In this document: positions 39,130-52,635 of the stretch, in pieces | Position numbering within the stretch: the stretch's first letter is position 1 | How the letters are laid out: each line of letters opens with the position of its first letter | Source of the DNA: Mesobacillus subterraneus | GTDB taxonomy: Bacteria > Bacillota > Bacilli > Bacillales > Cytobacillaceae | Length of the DNA stretch: 52,635 nucleotides | Direction: 5' to 3' | Assembly (NCBI RefSeq): GCF_000934845.1 | Contig: NZ_JXIQ01000015.1 | Coordinates: 1 to 52,635 of the forward strand | Position numbers and translations under genes: made by a program | Notes under the pieces: generated by a model | The model's database searches: none | Told to the model about the DNA's origin: nothing | Seen by the model: the letters and a program-made list of their open reading frames with translations, nothing else

Positions 39130-39146
39130 GCTTTGCTGTCGAAATC

Positions 39147-39379
39147 GTCCGAACTAGAGCCAACTTCGGACTGGTTTTGTCGGAAAAAGCGAAAAGCTGT
39201 CCGAACTAGAGCCAACTTCGGACAGTTTTTGTGGGAAAAGGGGAAAAGTAGTCCGAACTAAAGCCAACTTCGGACTGGTTTTGAGGGAAAAGACGAAAAG
39301 TAGTCCGAACTGAGGGCAACTTCGGACTGGTTTTGTCGGAAAAAGGGGAAAAGCTGTCCGAACTAGAGCAACTTCGGAC
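39147..39379 (+). repeat. Five-copy palindromic tandem repeat, 52-bp period
   Basis: Palindromes GTCCGAA...TTCGGAC begin at 39147, 39199, 39251, 39303 and 39356. The spacing is 52, 52, 52 and 53 bp. Each is 24-25 nt with a loop like CTAGAGCCAAC, followed by a spacer resembling TGGTTTTGTCGG then AAAAAGCGAAAAGCT. Stem arms are invariant in all five copies while loops vary, which suggests selection or homogenisation on the hairpin. The array directly follows jetD. Confidence 0.93.
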
Positions 39380-39455
39380 AGCTTTTAACAAAAAAGCTTG
39401 CAAATAATGTTGATAGACTTTGTATTTTTCCTTTAATACCGCCCATATAATAGGA

Positions 39456-44064: not shown

Positions 44065-46491
44065 ATGAATTTTATCGCTCACATTCGTGAAAGTGACAAA
44101 ACGATTCAAACTGTTGAAGAACATTTGTTGGCAGCTAAAGAGTTAGCAGAAACATATGGAGAAAAGCTAGGGGTAAAGCATTTAACTGGTTTAGCTGGAA
44201 TGCTGCATGACCTTGGTAAATACTCGAATGAATTTAGAGAATACATATTACAAGCAGTTAATAATCCTGCAGCACCTCCTAAACGTGGAAGCGTTGACCA
44301 CTCAACGGCAGGAGGGAAATTATTATACGAATTGTTTCACAAAGATAATATTTCAAGATATAAGGGAGTTGTTGCTGAGATTGTCGGTAATGCCATCCTG
44401 TCGCATCACTCGTATTTGCAAGATTTTTTGAATCCGGAATTGGAATCTAATTATTTAAGTAGAGTACGCGATAAGGATTTAAAAGACTTTGAAATAACAA
44501 AGAAACTATTTTTTGAAAACGTTATCAGTGAGCAAGATTTTCATCATTTTGTGAATAAAGCAGCAATTGAATTAGAAGCGTTTTTGGCAAAAGAAAGTTC
44601 GGAAAACACTGAAAAACAATTAATGTTTTTAACAAAATTTATTTTTAGTTCGTTGATTGATGCAGACCGTACGAATACGAGACAATTTGAGGGAAATCGA
44701 ACCAATGAAAAAACCATTGATCATGAAAAACTATTTTCTGTGTATTACGAGAAAGTTATCAATAAAATCAATACGTTCAAAAACGACTCTAACGCTGATC
44801 ACCCTATTAATGTTTTAAGAACTGAGATGTCAGACCAATGTGATGTATTTGCGGAGAAACCATCAGGGATTTATACATTATCAATACCAACAGGCGGGGG
44901 AAAAACATTAGCAAGTTTACGTTATGCACTAAAACACGCCAAACTTTTCAATAAAAAAAGGATTATTTACATTGTTCCCTACACCACTATTATTGAACAA
45001 AATGCGCAAGAAGTTCGAGATATTTTACATGATTCAGGAAATATATTGGAACATCATTCCAATATAATTGAAAACGAAAATGAGAACGATGAATTGCAAG
45101 ACGGGTTTATGAGTGTTCAGCAAAAATTAAAAATCGCAAAAGATAATTGGGATTCTCCCATTATTTTTACTACGATGGTTCAATTTTTGAATGTTTTTTA
45201 TGCAAAAGGAAGCAGAAACATAAGGAGGTTACACAATTTAGCTGAATCGGTAATTATTTTTGACGAGGTACAGAAAGTTCCAATATCCTGTGTTTCTTTA
45301 TTTAATCAGGCTTTGAATTTTTTAAAAACATATGCACAGTCTAGTATTGTTTTATGTACTGCAACTCAACCAGCGTTGGATTTTGTGGAAAATAAGTTAG
45401 AAATAAATCCGGATGCTGAGATTATTGGTCATCTTGATCAAGTAATTGAAGCTTTTAGGCGAGTAGAGATTATCGACTTGGCAACAAATCAAACCTTTAC
45501 TAATGAAAAATTAGCAGATTTTATTGAGGCTAAAATGGAAGACGTCCAAAGTGTTTTAATTATATTAAATACAAAGACTGTCGTTAAAAACTTATACACA
45601 ATTTTAAAGGAAAGGAATATCCAGGCTTCTGCTTATCATTTAAGTACTTCCATGTGTGCAGCACATCGAAATAATATATTAATTAAAGTTAAAGATGACC
45701 TTCTTTCCAAGAATAAAATCATTTGTATCAGTACCCAGCTAATTGAAGCTGGAGTCGATGTGAGTTTTGAATGTGTCATTCGCTCCTTAGCTGGATTGGA
45801 TTCTATTGCCCAAGCTGCTGGACGATGCAATCGACATGGAGAAAAAGATATTCAAAATGTTTATGTTATTGATCATGAGGAGGAAAACTTAAAACATTTA
45901 AAGGAAATTAGCGTGGGCAAACAGATATCAAAAAAAATTTTAGTCGATCTAAACCAAGATGCTTCAAATCATGGCGGACATATTCTATCAAAGCTCGCAA
46001 TGGAAAGGTATTTTAAAGAATTTTACACTAAGTTTTCATCCGACTTAAATTATTTTATTCCTGGTTTGAATAAAACGATGACCGAATTATTGACGGCTAA
46101 TAAAAATAAAAGCGGATTTTATCAAGCTTACAAGGCGAGGAATGGAGGCGTTCCTCCGTTATTTCTTGTCAACAGCTATAAAACGGCAGCAGAGCATTTT
46201 CAAGTTATTGAAGATTTGACAACATCTGTGATTGTACCTTTTGAAGATGGCAAAGAGATCATCGCAAATCTAAACAGTGATGGTTCCATTGATGATCTTA
46301 CTCGATTACTACGCAAAGCCCAGCATTATACAATCAATCTTTTTAAATATGAACTGGACCAACTATCTAAAAATGATGGATTAGTGAGTTATTTGGATGG
46401 GAAAATTTTTGTGTTAAAAGCAGGAGCTTATGACAGAGAATTTGGACTTAATTTAGAAAACGATAGTCAGTTACCTTTGGAATATATTTGA
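44065..46491 (+). CDS. cas3: CRISPR-associated helicase/nuclease Cas3 (type I-C)
   Basis: This 808-residue protein has an N-terminal HD nuclease domain (HDLGK at 48-52, with upstream His at 20) and a superfamily 2 helicase. Helicase motifs: Walker A SIPTGGGKT (about 272-280), DEVQ at 400-403, CTATQPAL, and motif VI AQAAGRCNRHG near 582. It degrades the DNA displaced by Cascade. A strong CGGAGGG site precedes the ATG. Cas3 has its own leader and is separated from the other cas genes by a 192-bp gap that contains the crRNA-like element, so it is probably transcribed separately. Confidence 0.95.
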   Translation: MNFIAHIRESDKTIQTVEEHLLAAKELAETYGEKLGVKHLTGLAGMLHDLGKYSNEFREYILQAVNNPAAPPKRGSVDHSTAGGKLLYELFHKDNISRYKGVVAEIVGNAILSHHSYLQDFLNPELESNYLSRVRDKDLKDFEITKKLFFENVISEQDFHHFVNKAAIELEAFLAKESSENTEKQLMFLTKFIFSSLIDADRTNTRQFEGNRTNEKTIDHEKLFSVYYEKVINKINTFKNDSNADHPINVLRTEMSDQCDVFAEKPSGIYTLSIPTGGGKTLASLRYALKHAKLFNKKRIIYIVPYTTIIEQNAQEVRDILHDSGNILEHHSNIIENENENDELQDGFMSVQQKLKIAKDNWDSPIIFTTMVQFLNVFYAKGSRNIRRLHNLAESVIIFDEVQKVPISCVSLFNQALNFLKTYAQSSIVLCTATQPALDFVENKLEINPDAEIIGHLDQVIEAFRRVEIIDLATNQTFTNEKLADFIEAKMEDVQSVLIILNTKTVVKNLYTILKERNIQASAYHLSTSMCAAHRNNILIKVKDDLLSKNKIICISTQLIEAGVDVSFECVIRSLAGLDSIAQAAGRCNRHGEKDIQNVYVIDHEEENLKHLKEISVGKQISKKILVDLNQDASNHGGHILSKLAMERYFKEFYTKFSSDLNYFIPGLNKTMTELLTANKNKSGFYQAYKARNGGVPPLFLVNSYKTAAEHFQVIEDLTTSVIVPFEDGKEIIANLNSDGSIDDLTRLLRKAQHYTINLFKYELDQLSKNDGLVSYLDGKIFVLKAGAYDREFGLNLENDSQLPLEYI

Positions 46492-46563
46492 AAATCCTAT
46501 CTATAGATAGGCTTTAACAAATAATATACTATATATTTCAATCCGCGCTAAGAAGAAAGCGAC
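46490..46563 (-). ncRNA. Candidate CRISPR-repeat-like regulatory RNA (CreR-type)
   Basis: Read on the minus strand, 46563-46535 is a 29-nt degenerate copy of the array repeat. It keeps the repeat's first five bases (GTCGC) and last ten (GGATTGAAAT). The changed middle still forms a short CGCT/AGCG stem, followed by exactly 11 nt (CGGATTGAAAT), the handle length Cas5c leaves on I-C crRNAs. A consensus promoter places the start at the first repeat base. A pseudo-spacer (from 46534; ATATAGTATATTATTT and on) runs into the perfect palindrome CCTATCTATAGATAGG (46511-46496) and ATTTTC, a plausible 3' end. The pseudo-spacer matches the cas5c promoter. I infer a crRNA-like guide that makes Cascade repress its own operon. 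A CreTA-type antitoxin or a dead repeat are the alternatives. Confidence 0.7.
46496..46511. terminator. Perfect palindrome between cas3 and the crRNA-like RNA
   Basis: CCTATCTATAGATAGG starts 4 nt after the cas3 stop. It can fold as a hairpin on both strands and lies at the convergent ends of cas3 (plus) and the crRNA-like RNA (minus, followed by ATTTTC). The T tracts are weak, so it may be a processing or stability boundary more than a strong terminator. Confidence 0.45.
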
Positions 46564-46569
46564 AACTTA

Positions 46570-46597
46570 ATTATATCATATTAAAGAAAGTTTACAA
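46570..46597 (-). promoter_or_regulatory. Promoter of the crRNA-like RNA (minus strand)
   Basis: On the minus strand, TTGTAA (46597-46592) and a perfect TATAAT (46575-46570) are 16 nt apart. A start 7 nt after the -10 falls on 46563, the first base of the degenerate repeat. The -35 overlaps the -35 of the divergent cas5c promoter. Confidence 0.6.
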
Positions 46598-46618
46598 AAA
46601 GTTCATATAATATATCAT
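46591..46618 (+). promoter_or_regulatory. Predicted promoter of the cas5c-cas8c-cas7c-cas4-cas1-cas2 operon
   Basis: TTTACA (46591-46596) and TATCAT (46613-46618) are separated by 16 nt; an alternative -10 TATAAT sits at 46606-46611. Either way the -10 lies inside the TTC-flanked pseudo-protospacer (46605-46620) matched by the crRNA-like RNA. The expected start near 46625 leaves a leader of about 60 nt. Confidence 0.55.
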
Positions 46619-46620
46619 TT
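46605..46620 (+). promoter_or_regulatory. Pseudo-protospacer with TTC PAM over the cas5c promoter
   Basis: TTC at 46602-46604 is directly followed by ATATAATATATCATTT. The pseudo-spacer of the minus-strand crRNA-like RNA begins ATATAGTATATTATTT. The two agree at positions 1-5, 7-11 and 13-16 and differ only at 6 and 12. They do not match beyond position 16. TTC is the PAM known for Bacillus-type I-C systems, and every sixth crRNA base is unpaired in type I Cascade. Confidence 0.6.
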
Positions 46621-46686
46621 AAATTTTTCTCAAAGAGGAGTATTGTTTAATTATAAAAAATATTTAGAATTTTTGGAGGTGAAATG

Positions 46687-47397
46687 ATGAGAAATATGAT
46701 TGAATTCGAAGTCTATGGAAAATATGCCTTATTCACAGATCCTTTAACAAAGATGGGGGGAGAAAAACTATCCTATCAAATCCCGACTTACCAGGCACTT
46801 AAAGGAATTGTAGAATCAATTTATTGGAAGCCTACGTTACTGATGGTTGTGGATGAAGTAAGGATAATGAATCCGATCCAAATGGAATCTAAAGGTATTC
46901 GTCCCATTGAATATGGGGGAGGAAATACACTAGCAAATTATACTTACCTAAAGGATGTTCGTTATCAAGTACGCGCACATTTTATCTTTAATCCATATCG
47001 ACCAGACATGGCATTTGATCGAAACGAAAACAAACATTTTAATATCCTGAAACGATCTCTCCGAGCTGGAGGGAGAAGAGATGTTTTCTTAGGAACAAGG
47101 GAATGTCAAGCATATGTAGAACCTTGTGTTTTTGGCGAGGGGGAAGGTTTCTATGACCAAGGAGAAATCCATTATGGAACGATGATACATGGGATTAACT
47201 ACCCTGATGAAACGGGAAGAAATGAAATGGAAGTTCGACTGTGGAATCCGGTGATGAAAGAGGGAATTATCAAGTTTCCACATCCAGACCAATGCACTTT
47301 AATAAGAAAAATTACAGAAATGCATCCAAAGAATTTCACAACTATCCAATCAGCAGACGAGCTTTTGAGTCAATTAGAGGAGGGAGGGAATAAATGA
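46687..47397 (+). CDS. cas5c: Cas5c (Cas5d), pre-crRNA endonuclease and Cascade subunit
   Basis: This 236-residue Cas5 of type I-C replaces Cas6: it cuts the repeat at the base of its hairpin and holds the 11-nt 5' handle. Family features are the N-terminal [36 protein letters not shown], and a Tyr/Lys-rich middle. Start choice: TTGGAGGTG lies 7 nt before ATG 46687; the adjacent ATG at 46684 is only 4 nt away. The stop overlaps cas8c (ATGA). It opens the operon whose promoter overlaps the pseudo-protospacer. Confidence 0.93.
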
Positions 47398-49262
47398 GTT
47401 GGTTATTAAACTTATATGAAACGTACGAATCAAATTTTGATCGAGTAGGAGTAGTTGAAAAGAAATCGAATGATCGAGAATTTACACTTTTGCCAATTTC
47501 TCATACAACACAAAATGCACATATTGAGGTAACGATCACAGAAGATGGAACTTTTCATTCCGCAAGGATACTAGATAAAAATGAAATGAACACATTAATT
47601 CCATGCACTGAAGGATCCGCAAATCGAGCAGGATCAAAAATTGCTCCTTATCCACTTCATGATAAGTTAAGTTATGTGGCAGGTGATTTTGTTGCATACG
47701 GTGGCAAAATAAAAAAAGAGGAACCCTTTACATACTATATCGCACAATTAAAAGAATGGGCAGAATCGCCGTATGCAGTATCAAAAGTGAAAAGTATTTA
47801 TAACTATGTATCAAAAAGAACTTTAATTAAAGATTTAGTTGATTCGAAGATATTATTTCTCGATGGCAGTGGCTATTTAATCGAAACATGGGATAAAAAG
47901 TATGAGTCCACCTACGCAGAAAAGCCAGCTATTTTTTCCGTTGTAACTGGTGGGCAGGAAAGTGCTTTTATTCGATTTACTGTTTATTCTTCTAAAAAAC
48001 TTTTAACAGAAGTTTGGAAGGATCAAGAAATGTATAATTCGTTCATTCGTTTTTATCAAGATTTATTAGGGGATAAAGATCTTTGTTATATAACAGGAAA
48101 TTTTTTGCCTAGCACGGATAAACACGCCAATAAAATACGTAATTCGGGTGATAAAGCAAAGCTAATTTCAGCTAACGATACAAGCGGTTTCACATTTAGG
48201 GGGCGCTTTAATAAAAGTTCTGAAGTGGCAAGTATCAGTTATGAAGTGTCTCAAAAAGCACATAATGCGTTAAAATGGTTGATTAATCGCCAAGGGAAAG
48301 TGATTGATCAGCGGGTATTTCTTGTTTGGGGCAATGATGATCTTTCTATTCCTAATGTCACCGAAGATACTTTTTCAATTGATCCTGTGCCAATAGAAAG
48401 AGAAAAGATATCTCATACAAATCAAGAGTTTGCCAGAGAAATCGCGAAAGCTTTCGATGGGCACAAAAATAATTTAACGCTAAAATCAGAGGTTAATGTT
48501 TTATTACTTGATTCTGCCACTACAGGTCGATTAGCTGTATTATACTACCGTAATTTACACAAAGAGCTTTATTTAGAGAGGCTGAAAAACTGGCATTCTA
48601 CTTGTGCTTGGATTCATCGCTACCGTAAAAATGACAATGGTGAATACGTCCATTTTTTTGGAGCACCGGCAACAAAAGACATTGCGTTTGCAGCATACGG
48701 ACCAAAAGCTAACGAGAAGATTGTGAAAGGATTAATGGAGCGACTGCTACCCTGCATTATTGATAATAAAGTTATTCCATTAGACATTGTTAAAAACGCA
48801 ATGAATCGGTCCTCCAATCCTGTATCAATGGAGAAATGGGAGTGGGAAAAAACGTTAAGTATTACTTGTGCATTGATTAATAAAATGGAGGGGTACAATG
48901 TGACATTGGACAAGGAAAATAAGGAACGGGATTATTTATTTGGTAGGTTGTTAGCGATTGCAGATGTACTAGAAAGAAGAGCTTTAGGGCCTGATGAAAA
49001 CCGTTCAAGCAATGCAATTCGATATATGAACTCTTTTTCAAAAAGTCCTGCAAGAACATGGAAAACAATTCAAGAAAGTCTGCAGCCATATCAAGCAAGA
49101 CTAGGTACAAAATCTCGATATTTATCCAGCCTTATAGATGAGGTAGCTTCCCAAATTGATTATGCAGATTTTAATAATAAACCATTATCAGGAAAATATT
49201 TATTAGGGTTTTATAGTCAACGGCATGAGTTGTATCAGAAAAAAGAAAATATAGAAAAATAA
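47394..49262 (+). CDS. cas8c: Cas8c (Csd1), Cascade large subunit
   Basis: This 622-residue Csd1-type large subunit recognises the PAM and nucleates the R-loop in type I-C Cascade. It begins [19 protein letters not shown], typical of the family, and contains AVGDF-like [22 protein letters not shown] and a C-terminal helical bundle (about 430-620). In type I-C its 3' part can also provide an internal Cas11c. An internal ATG at 48898-48900, just after GGAGGGGTACA, fits a Cas11c-type start, but I cannot prove it. Confidence 0.93.
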
Positions 49263-49278: not shown

Positions 49279-50142
49279 ATGACAATTTTAGATCACAAAG
49301 TTGATTTTTCTGTAGTTTTGTCTGTAACAAAAGCAAATCCAAATGGAGATCCGCTTAATGGTAACCGTCCACGGCAAAATTATGACGGCCATGGTGAAAT
49401 TTCAGATGTTGCCATAAAACGAAAAATTAGAAATCGTTTGCAAGACATGGGAGAATCTATTTTTGTACAATCAAATGACCGGTGTGTAGATGATTTTAAA
49501 AGCTTAAGAGAAAGAGCTGAATCAAACCCGGAGTTATTGAAACTGTTAAAATCAAAAACTTCTACCAATGATGAATTTGCAAAAATTGCTTGCAATGAAT
49601 GGATTGATGTAAGAAGTTTTGGACAGGTTTTTGCTTTTAAAGCTTCTGGTAGTGGAAGTGCGGTTTCAGTAGGTGTAAGGGGGCCGGTTTCTATCCATAC
49701 CGCAACCAGTATTGATCCGATTGATATTACTAGTATGCAGATAACGAAAAGTGTCAATTCAGAACCTGGAAAAGAAAAAGGATCAGATACAATGGGTATG
49801 AAGCATCGGGTGGATTTTGGGTTATATGTTTTTTACGGCAGTATTAACACACAGCTTGCTGAAAAAACGGGTTTTACAAATGAAGATGCAGAAAAAATCA
49901 AACAAGCTCTTGTTACTCTTTTTGAAAATGATACATCTGCTGCAAGACCGGATGGAAGTATGGAAGTACACAAGCTAATTTGGTGGGAACATAATTCAAA
50001 GCTTGGTCAATATTCGTCAGCAAAAGTTCATCGTTCTATAAAAATTGAATCTAAAATGGACGAGCCGAGATCTTTTGATGATTACTCTATCGCAGTTGAG
50101 CATTTGGAAGGTTTAGAAGCTGAGATCATCGATGGTTTATGA
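49279..50142 (+). CDS. cas7c: Cas7c (Csd2), Cascade backbone
   Basis: This 287-residue RRM-type backbone subunit coats the crRNA spacer, with about seven copies per complex. The family signature FSVVLSVTKANPNGDPLNGN lies near the start, followed by GEISDVAIKRKIRNRLQDMG and a later GVRGPVSIHTATSIDPIDI. An AAAAAGGAG site lies 9 nt before the ATG, stronger than those of its neighbours and consistent with high subunit demand. It overlaps cas4 by 11 nt. Confidence 0.95.
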   Translation: MTILDHKVDFSVVLSVTKANPNGDPLNGNRPRQNYDGHGEISDVAIKRKIRNRLQDMGESIFVQSNDRCVDDFKSLRERAESNPELLKLLKSKTSTNDEFAKIACNEWIDVRSFGQVFAFKASGSGSAVSVGVRGPVSIHTATSIDPIDITSMQITKSVNSEPGKEKGSDTMGMKHRVDFGLYVFYGSINTQLAEKTGFTNEDAEKIKQALVTLFENDTSAARPDGSMEVHKLIWWEHNSKLGQYSSAKVHRSIKIESKMDEPRSFDDYSIAVEHLEGLEAEIIDGL

Positions 50143-50791
50143 TGAAGAAAATGATTATTTGATGCTGTCAGGAATTCAACATTTTCAATTTTGCAAACGA
50201 CAATGGGCGCTAATCCATATAGAGCAGCAGTGGGAAGAAAATGTTCGGACGGTAGAAGGACAACATCTTCATCAAAAAGCGGATCAGCCATTTATTCGAG
50301 AAAAACGCGGGGATAAACTTATTGTTCGAGCGATGCCAGTTAGGTCGAACGAGCTAAAGATAACTGGAGTTTGCGATGTTGTTGAATTTATTCGAGATGA
50401 AAAAGGCGTTGAAATTAGCGGTTCAGAAGGAAAATATACCGCGTTTCCTATTGAGTACAAACGTGGGAAACCCAAATTGGACGATTCAGATGTCTTGCAG
50501 TTAACGGCACAAGCGATTTGTATTGAGGAAATGCTCTGTTGTGAGGTTAATCTGGGCTATATGTTTTATAATGAAATTAAACACAGAGTCGAAGTGCCAT
50601 TAACGGAAGAATACAAATTGAAAGTAAAGACAATCGTTGCAGAAATGCATGAATATTATGATCGAAGGCATACGCCGAAAGTGAAAACAGGTTCATTTTG
50701 TAAAAATTGTTCCCTTCAAAATATTTGTTTACCGAAGTTAATGAATAAACAGTCTGTGAAAAGTTTTATTGATGGGAAGATCAATGAATGA
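50132..50791 (+). CDS. cas4: Cas4 (type I-C), PAM-side spacer processing nuclease
   Basis: This 219-residue RecB-like nuclease has a predicted [4Fe-4S] cluster: C21 (FQFCKRQW) and C190, C193, C199 (GSFCKNCSLQNICLP). The nuclease core has FPIEYKRGKPKLDDSD (Glu and Lys of the RecB motif) and DVLQLTAQAICIEE. Cas4 works with Cas1-Cas2 to trim prespacers and set the PAM end. The stop overlaps cas1 (ATGA). Confidence 0.94.
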   Translation: MVYDEENDYLMLSGIQHFQFCKRQWALIHIEQQWEENVRTVEGQHLHQKADQPFIREKRGDKLIVRAMPVRSNELKITGVCDVVEFIRDEKGVEISGSEGKYTAFPIEYKRGKPKLDDSDVLQLTAQAICIEEMLCCEVNLGYMFYNEIKHRVEVPLTEEYKLKVKTIVAEMHEYYDRRHTPKVKTGSFCKNCSLQNICLPKLMNKQSVKSFIDGKINE

Positions 50792-51819
50792 AAAAATTAT
50801 TAAACACGTTATTTATAACACAACCAGACGTTTACTTATCATTAGATGGGGATAATATTGTTCTTCTTAAAGAAAAAGAACAGTTAGGCAGGCTTCCTCT
50901 TCACAATTTAGAGGCAATCAACTCTTTTGGATATACTGGCGCTAGTCCGGCATTAATGGGTTACTGTGCTGAGAAAAACATTTCTATCGTTTTTTTTACG
51001 ATGAACGGCAGATTTCTTGCAAGAGTCATAGGGAAAAGTAGAGGAAATGTTGTATTAAGAAAGAAACAATACCGAATATCTGATGATGAAGTAGTTTCTG
51101 CTAAAGTGGCGCGAAATTTTATTGTTGGGAAAATTTTCAATCATAAATGGATTCTTGAAAGAATAACGAGAGACTATCCGTTGCGAGTAGATGTGTCCCA
51201 ATTCAAAGAGGTTTCAAAACAGTTGTCGGAGATAATTATTCAAGTTAGAAACTGTGAAGATTTAGAAAGGCTAAGAGGCCTTGAAGGACAAGCAGCCATT
51301 AGTTATAACAAAGTATTTAATCAAATGATTTTGCAGCAAAAAGAAGATTTCTCTTTTCAATTCCGTTCTCGTAGGCCACCTACTGATAATGTGAACGCCA
51401 TGCTATCATTTGCTTATACTTTATTATCAAATGACATGGCGGCTGCTTTAGAAGGTGTAGGACTTGATGCCTATGTTGGTTTTTTACATCGAGACCGTCC
51501 GGGTAGAGCTTCTTTAGCATTAGATCTTATGGAAGAGCTTCGCGGTGTCTATGCTGATCGGTTTGTTCTATCATTAATCAATAAAAAAATTGTTAGTAAA
51601 GATGATTTTCATCAAAAAGAGAATGGGGCTGTTATAATGACAGACGATGCCAGAAAAAGGTTTTTAGGAGCTTGGCAATCCAGAAAACAGGAAAAAATTA
51701 CGCATCCCTATCTTGGTGAAAAAATCTCCTGGGGATTAGTACCTCATGTGCAATCATTATTATTAGCCCGTTTTTTACGGGGTGACTTAGATGAGTACCC
51801 ACCTTTTTTATGGAAGTAG
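50788..51819 (+). CDS. cas1: Cas1 (type I-C) spacer integrase
   Basis: This 343-residue integrase has the metal-binding residues E166 (RLRGLEGQAAISY), H234 (GFLHRDRPGR) and D246 (ASLALDLMEEL). The N-terminal beta domain starts KKLLNTLFITQPDVYLSLDG. Length and motifs suit subtype I-C. It sits between cas4 and cas2 in the normal order. Confidence 0.96.
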   Translation: MKKLLNTLFITQPDVYLSLDGDNIVLLKEKEQLGRLPLHNLEAINSFGYTGASPALMGYCAEKNISIVFFTMNGRFLARVIGKSRGNVVLRKKQYRISDDEVVSAKVARNFIVGKIFNHKWILERITRDYPLRVDVSQFKEVSKQLSEIIIQVRNCEDLERLRGLEGQAAISYNKVFNQMILQQKEDFSFQFRSRRPPTDNVNAMLSFAYTLLSNDMAAALEGVGLDAYVGFLHRDRPGRASLALDLMEELRGVYADRFVLSLINKKIVSKDDFHQKENGAVIMTDDARKRFLGAWQSRKQEKITHPYLGEKISWGLVPHVQSLLLARFLRGDLDEYPPFLWK

Positions 51820-51828
51820 GTGGATATT

Positions 51829-52119
51829 TTGTTAGTACTAATCACTTATGATGTCAGCACAATTAGTAATACTGGTCAAAAGAGACTACGAAAAGTTTCA
51901 AAAATATGTCAAAATTATGGACAACGAGTCCAGAATTCCGTTTTTGAATGTGTTGTCGATTCAACCCAATTCGCAGCTTTAAAAATTGAACTTGCGAATG
52001 TTATCGACAAAGAGAAGGATAGTCTTAGGTTTTATCAATTAGGCAATAATTACAAAAATAAAGTGGAACATTTAGGTATAAAAGAGTCGGTGGATGTAGA
52101 AGGTCCATTAATTTTTTAA
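51829..52119 (+). CDS. cas2: Cas2 (type I-C)
   Basis: Small ferredoxin-fold partner of Cas1. Starting from TTG 51829 it is 96 residues, the usual I-C length, beginning LVLITYDVST with the conserved Asp of the YDVS motif. GQRVQNSVFECVVD and KEKDSLRFYQLGNN are typical. AGGTGG lies 5 nt upstream. A GTG at 51820 directly after the cas1 stop would add three residues but has no separate ribosome binding site. Confidence 0.93.
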   Translation: MLVLITYDVSTISNTGQKRLRKVSKICQNYGQRVQNSVFECVVDSTQFAALKIELANVIDKEKDSLRFYQLGNNYKNKVEHLGIKESVDVEGPLIF

Positions 52120-52288: not shown

Positions 52289-52635
52289 GTCGCACCCTGT
52301 ACGGGTGCGTGGATTGAAATTGTTACATCGACATCACTGAATAGGATGCCTTTGTCGCACCCTGTACGGGTGCGTGGATTGAAATCCCTCGACCCATCCG
52401 ACTGTCTGGCCGGCTACGACGTCGCACCCTGTACGGGTGCGTGGATTGAAATGTGAAGTCACCTTTGCCTGTCAAGATGAAATGCGTCGCACCCTGTACG
52501 GGTGCGTGGATTGAAATTAGTTATTCTGCTGAAGTTTTGGAATACGAAAGAAGTCGCACCCTGTACGGGTGCGTGGATTGAAATTGATGACAATGCCAAT
52601 TGATCACTACTATAAACCGTCGCACCCTGTACGGG
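52289..52635 (+). CRISPR. Type I-C CRISPR array (leader end; runs off the window)
   Basis: Five complete identical 32-nt repeats start at 52289, 52354, 52421, 52486 and 52553, and a sixth begins at 52619 and is cut by the window end. Each starts GTCGCACCC, has TGTAC as loop, and ends GGGTGCGTGGATTGAAAT. The CGCACCC/GGGTGCG stem leaves the 11-nt handle TGGATTGAAAT. Spacers are 33, 35, 33, 35 and 34 nt. No repeat divergence is seen, as expected for the leader-proximal end. Spacer sources were not identified, and none matches elsewhere in the window by eye. Confidence 0.98.

What the first reader, a model, noticed from the sequence alone, without database searches (positions are those of the whole stretch)
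46490..46563. Candidate crRNA-like regulatory RNA (CreR-type) hidden between cas3 and cas5c
The minus strand holds a degenerate repeat sharing 15 terminal bases with the real array repeat (GTCGC and GGATTGAAAT). The divergent core still forms CGCT/AGCG, followed by exactly 11 nt, the Cas5c handle length. A consensus promoter puts the transcript start on the first repeat base, and a perfect palindrome closes the pseudo-spacer. A dead stray repeat would not be expected to keep the stem, handle length, promoter and 3' palindrome together. Cas-regulating RNAs and CreA guards are known in other type I systems; I do not know of this one being described.
Basis: partly seen in the sequence, partly recalled or inferred. 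Interest (0 to 1): 0.96.

Follow-up and report, generated by a model that had tools for sequence, protein, structure and literature searches.

The report
CRISPR guide RNA silencing its own genes
A small CRISPR-like RNA hidden between two defence genes appears to guide the bacterium's own CRISPR complex to the switch of its own genes and turn it down, and the same arrangement recurs in many related bacteria; the general trick is known, but I found no description of it for this CRISPR subtype in the papers I could read.

Summary
Behind cas3 of a complete type I-C locus, the minus strand carries a 29-nt pseudo-repeat (46563-46535) with an extended -10 promoter in front and a terminator-like palindrome (46511-46496) behind. 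The 17-nt guide (46534-46518) matches a protospacer at 46605-46621 with a TTC PAM, in the cas5c promoter region. It agrees at positions 1-5, 7-11 and 13-16 and mismatches at 6, 12 and 17; 6 and 12 are (recalled) bases that type I Cascades flip out and do not read. None of 20,000 shuffles reached this.

Forty of 80 usable I-C loci carry the element, all antisense, and guide and target co-vary. Over 61 distinct matching pairs, positions 6 and 12 mismatch in 48 and 43, positions 1-5 never. Of 22 model hits new to the survey, 20 have a target.

Best explanation: a CreR-type RNA by which Cas5c-Cas8c-Cas7 represses its own operon. CreR is known from I-B, I-E and V-A. I found no I-C description in what I could read, but two key papers were not held. 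No expression data exist.

The parts
46535..46563 (-). creR pseudo-repeat (29 nt): GTCGC, short stem CGCT/AGCG, handle
   Evidence: conserved in 26-row alignment A1
46535..46545 (-). 11-nt 5' handle CGGATTGAAAT (array repeat has TGGATTGAAAT)
   Evidence: GGATTGAAA invariant in A1 (every row was chosen for carrying it)
46518..46534 (-). guide (pseudo-spacer) ATATAGTATATTATTTG
46496..46511 (.). palindrome CCTATCTATAGATAGG, inferred creR terminator hairpin just behind the cas3 stop
   Evidence: sequence; conserved hairpin with compensatory pairs in relatives; not called by the terminator scan
46570..46597 (-). inferred creR promoter TTGTAA-N16-TATAAT with TG before the -10
   Evidence: extended -10 TGNTAWAMT in 28 of 36 elements
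46602..46604 (+). PAM TTC
   Evidence: TTC at 31 of 36 best sites when no PAM was asked for
46605..46621 (+). protospacer ATATAATATATCATTTA matched by the guide at 1-5, 7-11, 13-16
   Evidence: best match of the PAM-plus-guide pattern in the whole genome
46591..46618 (+). candidate cas5c promoter TTTACA-N16-TATCAT, -10 inside the protospacer
46618..46646 (+). alternative cas5c promoter TTTAAA-N17-TATTGT, at the place of the clearer promoters of relatives
44065..46491 (+). cas3
46684..47397 (+). cas5c (repeat endonuclease of I-C, review passage; first gene of the presumed target operon)
   Evidence: TIGR01876 E 1.5e-83
47394..49262 (+). cas8c
49279..50142 (+). cas7c
50132..52119 (+). cas4, cas1c, cas2 (50132-50791, 50788-51819, 51820-52119)
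52289..52635 (+). CRISPR array with canonical repeats, cut by the window end

Best explanation
The element is creR of a type I-C system: a short, single-repeat, terminator-ended crRNA-like gene. It is transcribed leftward from a promoter facing the cas5c promoter. Cas5c binds and cuts the small repeat hairpin, leaving the handle, and Cas8c and Cas7 assemble on a guide of about 17 informative nucleotides that runs into the terminator hairpin. This complex recognises TTC plus the partial protospacer in the cas5c promoter region and blocks transcription of cas5c-cas8c-cas7-cas4-cas1-cas2, while cas3, upstream, is left out. Pairing stops at position 15-17 in most loci, presumably too short to license Cas3 cutting, so the outcome is repression and not self-destruction. 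When array crRNAs or anti-CRISPRs take away Cascade, repression lifts. Shown here: anatomy, conservation, guide/target co-variation, PAM, promoter-region location. Inferred: transcription, processing, repression, sensing.
For: Window: 14 of 15 non-flipped positions match behind TTC; 0 of 20,000 dinucleotide shuffles of its own region reach that. It is the only site in the 3.9-Mb genome with one mismatch over the 18 PAM and guide letters; three sites have 2 and fifteen have 3 (the guide itself among them), against 14 sites for the reversed control pattern. Relatives: 31 of 36 elements have an own + strand TTC site with at least 13 of 15 matches, against 1 of 7,200 shuffles. With no PAM demanded and all 17 positions weighted equally, the best site has TTC in 31 of 36 although TTC is 2.25% of sites there; mismatches fall at 6 (23 of 31), 12 (20 of 31), 16 and 17 (8 and 18), with at most 2 at any other position. 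New to the survey: 22 model hits, 20 with a target of at least 13 of 15 (19, where 0 of 4,200 shuffles did; L161). In 9 cases guide and target lie on the same strand, so this is not just an inverted repeat (L064, L069, L075, L084, L097, L099, L101, L140, G278). Placement: -35 of the best cas5c promoter lies within positions 1-34 of the protospacer in 27 of 31, 46% in shuffles; exact TTGAC there in 14 of 31 against 0.65 expected. Model R1 on 398 genomes: all 17 hits with E up to 2.6e-4 lie antisense upstream of cas5c, 14 within 0.3 kb and 3 at 0.6-0.9 kb.
Against: No RNA or expression data. Half of the I-C loci surveyed lack the element, and presence is scattered on the Cas5c tree (30 changes, no fewer than shuffled labels, 27.4), so it is dispensable. 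L070/G335 and L083/G339 keep an intact-looking element without a good target (7 and 11 of 15); G187 has 12 of 15; L019 and L021 have no TTC target. In the window the cas5c promoter is weak by consensus (8 of 12 at the homologous place; 10 of 12 for another). Guide and target are AT-rich and close relatives share sequence: in the cross test the own region beat all others for only 19 of 36 guides, and not for the window (4 of 35 others did as well). The window RNA folds no better than shuffles, and the terminator scan calls no terminator.
Confidence: 0.9

Rival explanations
1. CreA-type antitoxin: the guide represses a hidden toxin (RNA or protein) rather than cas5c.
For: CreA has the same anatomy, with one or two repeat-like sequences and a spacer partly matching a promoter (PMC9458426, introduction). 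Seven loci have 280-886 nt between target and cas5c, with small ORFs in the four loci with a long gap that were looked at (L006, L081, L064, L059). G278 (L186) has a DUF3800 gene behind its creR-like element.
Against: In the window 79 nt, and at the median 98 nt over 31 loci, separate target and cas5c start; that stretch must hold the promoter and 5' leader. No ORF of at least 80 aa lies there in the window. A very short toxin RNA was not tested for.
Confidence: 0.05
2. A decayed stray repeat from an old array, kept by chance.
For: A single degenerate copy; half of the loci lack it; L046 and L076 look like decaying copies (read by eye).
Against: Same place, strand and handle, and in most the same terminator and -10, in many genera; guide and target co-vary with a 6-nt period.
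Confidence: 0.02
3. The two similar stretches are an inverted repeat bound by a protein regulator or forming a hairpin, unrelated to Cascade.
For: In most loci guide and target face each other as an inverted repeat of about 16 bp, both AT-rich.
Against: TTC is on the target side (31 of 36 best sites with no PAM asked) and the repeat handle on the guide side; mismatches concentrate at 6 and 12; 9 cases have the target in direct orientation.
Confidence: 0.02
4. A decoy that titrates Cas5c or Cascade (Racr-like) without targeting.
For: A solitary repeat unit is the hallmark of Racrs (PMC10651486 passages), and an I-C Racr exists.
Against: It has a conserved guide with a matched PAM site and sits in host cas loci; three viral-contig scans found no such element.
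Confidence: 0.01

Closest known systems
CreR, cas-regulating RNAs (Liu et al. 2023; seen only through passages of PMC13131331, PMC12737573 and PMC12948488; the paper itself not held)
   Same: crRNA-like RNA partly complementary to its own cas promoter; autorepression by the CRISPR effector.
   Different: Described for I-B, I-E and V-A according to PMC13131331. Here type I-C, where Cas5d does the repeat cutting (PMC7064716 passage); one repeat, guide running into a terminator; targets the cas5c operon.
crRNA-like elements / mini-arrays of CRISPR-Cas loci (Shmakov et al. 2023, NAR gkad495; seen only as a reference; not held; content recalled)
   Same: Standalone repeats with spacers partly matching cas promoters, mostly type I (recalled).
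   Different: Could not be checked; it may already list I-C examples.
CreA of CreTA and CrePA (PMC9458426 abstract, introduction and passages; review passages)
   Same: Degenerate ectopic repeat, partial match to a promoter, TTC PAM in haloarchaea.
   Different: Target there is a toxin promoter; here the cas5c promoter region. The G278 locus with a DUF3800 gene is closer to this kind.
scaRNA of Francisella (PMC9458426 passage) and the Cas9 natural single guide (title in the reference list of PMC10651486)
   Same: RNA with limited complementarity turns a Cas effector into a repressor.
   Different: Cas9-based, not Cascade.
RacrIC1 (PMC10651486 passages)
   Same: Solitary I-C repeat RNA.
   Different: Prophage-encoded inhibitor of CRISPR, not a guide to a promoter.

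Membership tests
CreR | crRNA-like gene with one or two degenerate repeats beside the cas genes ('one or two' is stated for CreA; for CreR recalled) | tested here: met
   (one repeat)
CreR | guide partly complementary to its own cas promoter, with PAM | tested here: met
   that the site is in a working promoter is inferred from consensus
CreR | not coupled to a toxin gene | tested here: met
   79 nt between target and cas5c, no ORF of 80 aa or more; a very short toxin RNA is not excluded
CreR | transcribed, processed and bound by the effector | not testable with these tools
   promoter-like site, hairpin and handle present; no RNA data
CreR | represses cas genes; relieved by crRNAs or anti-CRISPRs | not testable with these tools
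   no expression data
CreA (CreTA/CrePA) | target is the promoter of a toxin RNA or toxin gene | tested here: not met
   target lies in the cas5c promoter region
Racr | solitary repeat on a mobile element, inhibits by binding Cas proteins | tested here: not met
   inside the host cas locus with a matched guide; viral scans empty
Type I-C CRISPR-Cas (host system) | cas3-cas5c-cas8c-cas7-cas4-cas1-cas2 and array | tested here: met
Known RNA family (Rfam 15) | match above gathering score at 46200-46900 | tested here: not met
   one sub-threshold snoRNA match at 46231-46267, inside cas3

The most novel reading that the evidence does not exclude
Type I-C systems of Bacilli have their own, previously undescribed CreR lineage: a one-repeat, terminator-capped guide that throttles Cascade and adaptation genes but not cas3, moves to the region in front of cas3 when cas3 and cas5c fuse into one operon (L084, G386, G155), and in at least one case (G278) sits with a DUF3800 gene instead. 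Its guides are a natural record of which guide bases type I-C Cascade reads: 1-5, 7-11 and 13-15 nearly fixed, 6 and 12 free.
Probability: 0.5. Interest if true: 0.75.

Novelty: new variant of a known kind. Interest (0 to 1): 0.65.

Why it matters
It would extend RNA-guided self-regulation to type I-C, one of the commonest subtypes (so the abstract of PMC7684278, listing), and explain how these bacteria keep Cascade in check. Because guide and target have co-evolved in many genera, the loci give an independent read-out of seed length, PAM and unread guide positions for I-C Cascade in nature. It also offers a ready sensor: anti-CRISPRs or crRNA load should switch the cas5c promoter on.

Tried and rejected
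Stray decayed repeat: rejected on conservation and co-variation. Toxin guard: not favoured in the window, little room between target and cas5c. Known RNA family: none. Virus-borne copies: one Cas5c scan and two pattern scans of viral contigs found none. Spread beyond Bacilli: 299 genomes of the phylum gave two model hits at E up to 0.001, the window's own genome and G812, which is in the phylum but not in the class; its element lies beside a cas5c but its best target is only 7 of 15. Eight of the 34 plasmid records with Cas5c were scanned (Lysinibacillus, Monoglobus, Lacticaseibacillus, Zymomonas, Nitratidesulfovibrio, Thermus, Paenibacillus, Streptomyces); only the Paenibacillus one (L148) has a creR-like element near cas5c, and it has no target of 12 or more. 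That scan used the Bacilli handle and would miss others. The covariance model was built from 26 of the 36 elements; L019, L021, L029, L031, L045, L049, L052, L059, L079 and L082 were left out as divergent or duplicate.

Weak points met on the way: the first scan shifted the spacer by one base when the handle's last base was A or G and was redone. Loci from the genome search are not turned to the match strand, so one search missed the minus-strand loci; these were redone. The script chose a wrong handle in L161; one search took the right one (14 of 15, not in the survey set). Shuffles for G386, G155 and G278 were added (0 of 2,000 each). The I-C paper PMC11417383 gave no passage for the words asked.

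Full report
WHAT IS THERE. The window's right end holds a complete type I-C locus: cas3, cas5c, cas8c, cas7, cas4, cas1, cas2 and an array with repeat GTCGCACCCTGTACGGGTGCGTGGATTGAAAT. Between cas3 (stop at 46491) and cas5c (start 46684) the minus strand reads, in order: TTGTAA-N16-TATAAT with TG before the -10 (46597-46570), the pseudo-repeat GTCGCTTTCTTCTTAGCGCGGATTGAAAT (46563-46535), a 17-nt guide ATATAGTATATTATTTG (46534-46518), and, after a few more bases, the palindrome CCTATCTATAGATAGG (46511-46496). Neither the promoter match nor the fold of this one copy exceeds chance by itself.

THE TARGET. Against the guide it matches at 1-5, 7-11 and 13-16 and mismatches at 6, 12 and 17. TTC is the PAM reported for a type I-C system (start of the abstract of PMC8406640, listing). 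Every sixth guide base is flipped out and unread in type I Cascades (recalled; the two I-C structure papers queried gave no passage for the words asked about this). Of the 15 non-flipped positions 14 match; 0 of 20,000 dinucleotide shuffles of the region do as well. In the whole genome this is the best match of the TTC-plus-guide pattern (1 mismatch in 18 letters); 18 others have 2-3 mismatches, the guide itself among them, against 14 matches of the reversed control pattern.

RELATIVES. The genome-contig scan with the window's Cas5c returned the best 80 of 211 loci, by title nearly all Bacilli. An exact GGATTGAAA handle lies on the minus strand of the cas3-cas5c gap in 35 of the 80, in none on the plus strand of the gap. 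With the window that makes 36 elements. Four more loci (L044, L064, L073, L075) have displaced or degenerate ones. One locus, L017, starts at the contig end and is left out: 40 of 80 usable loci, window included. Gaps of at least 160 nt carry it in 39 of 45, shorter gaps in 1 of 35. The layout is alike in most: cas3 stop, hairpin of the AACCTATCT...AGATAGGTT kind, guide, handle, short stem, extended -10, TTC target, cas5c promoter. The extended -10 is present in 28 of 36. The consensus structure has both hairpins, with 5 of 13 pairs changed on both sides in at least one sequence.

GUIDE AND TARGET CO-VARY. In 31 of 36 elements the guide has an own + strand TTC site in the gap with 13-15 of 15 matches; 1 of 7,200 shuffles does. 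The exceptions are L019, L021, L070 and L083, and L069, whose match (15 of 15) is on the minus strand. When no PAM is asked and all 17 positions count alike, the best site has TTC in 31 of 36 (one of them, L083, weak and tied), against 2.25% of sites; mismatches at positions 1-17 are 0,0,0,0,0,23,0,0,0,2,1,20,0,1,1,8,18 of 31. Guides are partly shared between relatives: for 19 of 36 the own region beats every other locus's region, but not for the window, where 4 of 35 other regions do as well. Twelve cases judged on both strands, L069 and eleven outside the 36 (the array-end spacer of L084 among them), each gave 0 of 2,000 shuffles. Pooling the pairs that passed (61 distinct), mismatches are 48 at position 6, 43 at 12, 0 at 1-5, 7, 8 and 13, 1-4 at 9, 10, 11, 14 and 15, 9 at 16 and 32 at 17; these pairs were chosen for matching at the non-flipped positions, so only 6 and 12, and the shuffles are free of that choice.

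INDEPENDENT CHECKS. A covariance model from 26 elements was run on 398 genomes of the class. All 17 hits with E up to 2.6e-4 (the window's own among them) lie upstream of cas5c on the opposite strand, 14 within 0.3 kb and 3 at 0.6-0.9 kb; of the 9 weaker ones 8 are in genomes where one search found no cas5c and one (G386) is a real element in front of cas3. Cas5c passes its cut-off in 53 of the 398. I scanned by script the cas5c neighbourhoods of the other 36: five more have a guide-target pair (G376, G004, G386, G155, G278), so 22 of 53 carry an element, 19 with a target of at least 13 of 15; in G278 the target is not the cas promoter. A second draw of 299 genomes of the order gave 20 hits at E up to 0.001. 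Among hits at that level of the two draws, 22 elements are not in the survey set; 20 have a target of at least 13 of 15 (19, with 0 of 4,200 shuffles; L161), G187 reaches 12 of 15, and G436 is not beside a cas5c in the fetched stretch and has no handle. These genomes are still relatives of the training loci.

HOW IT PROBABLY WORKS. The conserved parts are those a crRNA needs: a stem that Cas5d can use (a 3-bp stem and a tetraloop suffice, review passage PMC7064716), the handle clamped by Cas5c (PMC7684278 passage), and a seed with PAM. Pairing mostly ends at 15-17 and the following bases form the terminator hairpin. The -35 of the best cas5c promoter starts at a median of 22 nt from the first protospacer base, inside positions 1-34 in 27 of 31; in shuffles 46% fall there, and exact TTGAC is found there in 14 of 31 against 0.65 expected. 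A bound Cascade should cover it. Cas3 is upstream and would not be repressed. Short pairing should spare the chromosome from Cas3, as for CreA (recalled). In operons with cas3 and cas5c close together the element, in the three cases found, sits in front of cas3 (L084; G386; G155). In L084 the guide is the last spacer of an array, which suggests how such elements arise. L027 has the element while L022 and L023, with nearly the same Cas5c, have a 12-nt gap: there loss went with closure of the gap.

KNOWN OR NEW. [quoted passage not shown] My ten paper searches, judged by their listings and by passages of the nine papers I opened, showed no description of an I-C CreR. The two papers most likely to hold one, Liu 2023 and Shmakov 2023, are not in the library. 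I therefore call it a new variant of a known kind, with that reservation.

Noticed in passing
L186 (reverse complement 565-1526; G278): A creR-like guide whose TTC target (mismatches only at 6 and 12; 0 of 2,000 shuffles) lies 45 nt upstream of the element's handle, followed by a DUF3800 gene (PF12686) and then cas3: looks like a CRISPR-repressed protein gene, CrePA-like.
   Followed up: partly
L084:900-1400: The last spacer of a real array upstream of cas3 matches a TTC site about 120 nt further on, upstream of cas3 (14 of 15, 0 of 2,000 shuffles): a possible ancestral creR.
   Followed up: partly
L171 (G812): A creR-like pseudo-repeat beside cas5c in a genome of the phylum but outside the class, without a target in the 420 nt searched.
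   Followed up: no
L081:3624-3917, also L018, L020, L059: Small orphan transposase-like HTH ORFs between the creR region and cas5c (PF01527 in L081); the other three were only read by eye.
   Followed up: partly
L064:3689-3916, L148:4190-4406: Small ORFs between creR and cas5c in Paenibacillus (L064 scanned, no Pfam match; L148 read by eye); possible CreR-controlled cargo.
   Followed up: no
L005, L015, L043 gaps: Only the AACCTATCT terminator hairpin, or a remnant of it, is left behind cas3, the creR part being gone (read).
   Followed up: no
phage records MT837094 and MT836695: Two short phage records from faecal samples hold distant Cas5c-like matches (29% and 26.5% identity).
   Followed up: no
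window 39142-39401: Four overlapping copies of a 104-nt stretch spaced 52 nt apart, i.e. a 52-nt tandem repeat, far from the cas locus.
   Followed up: no
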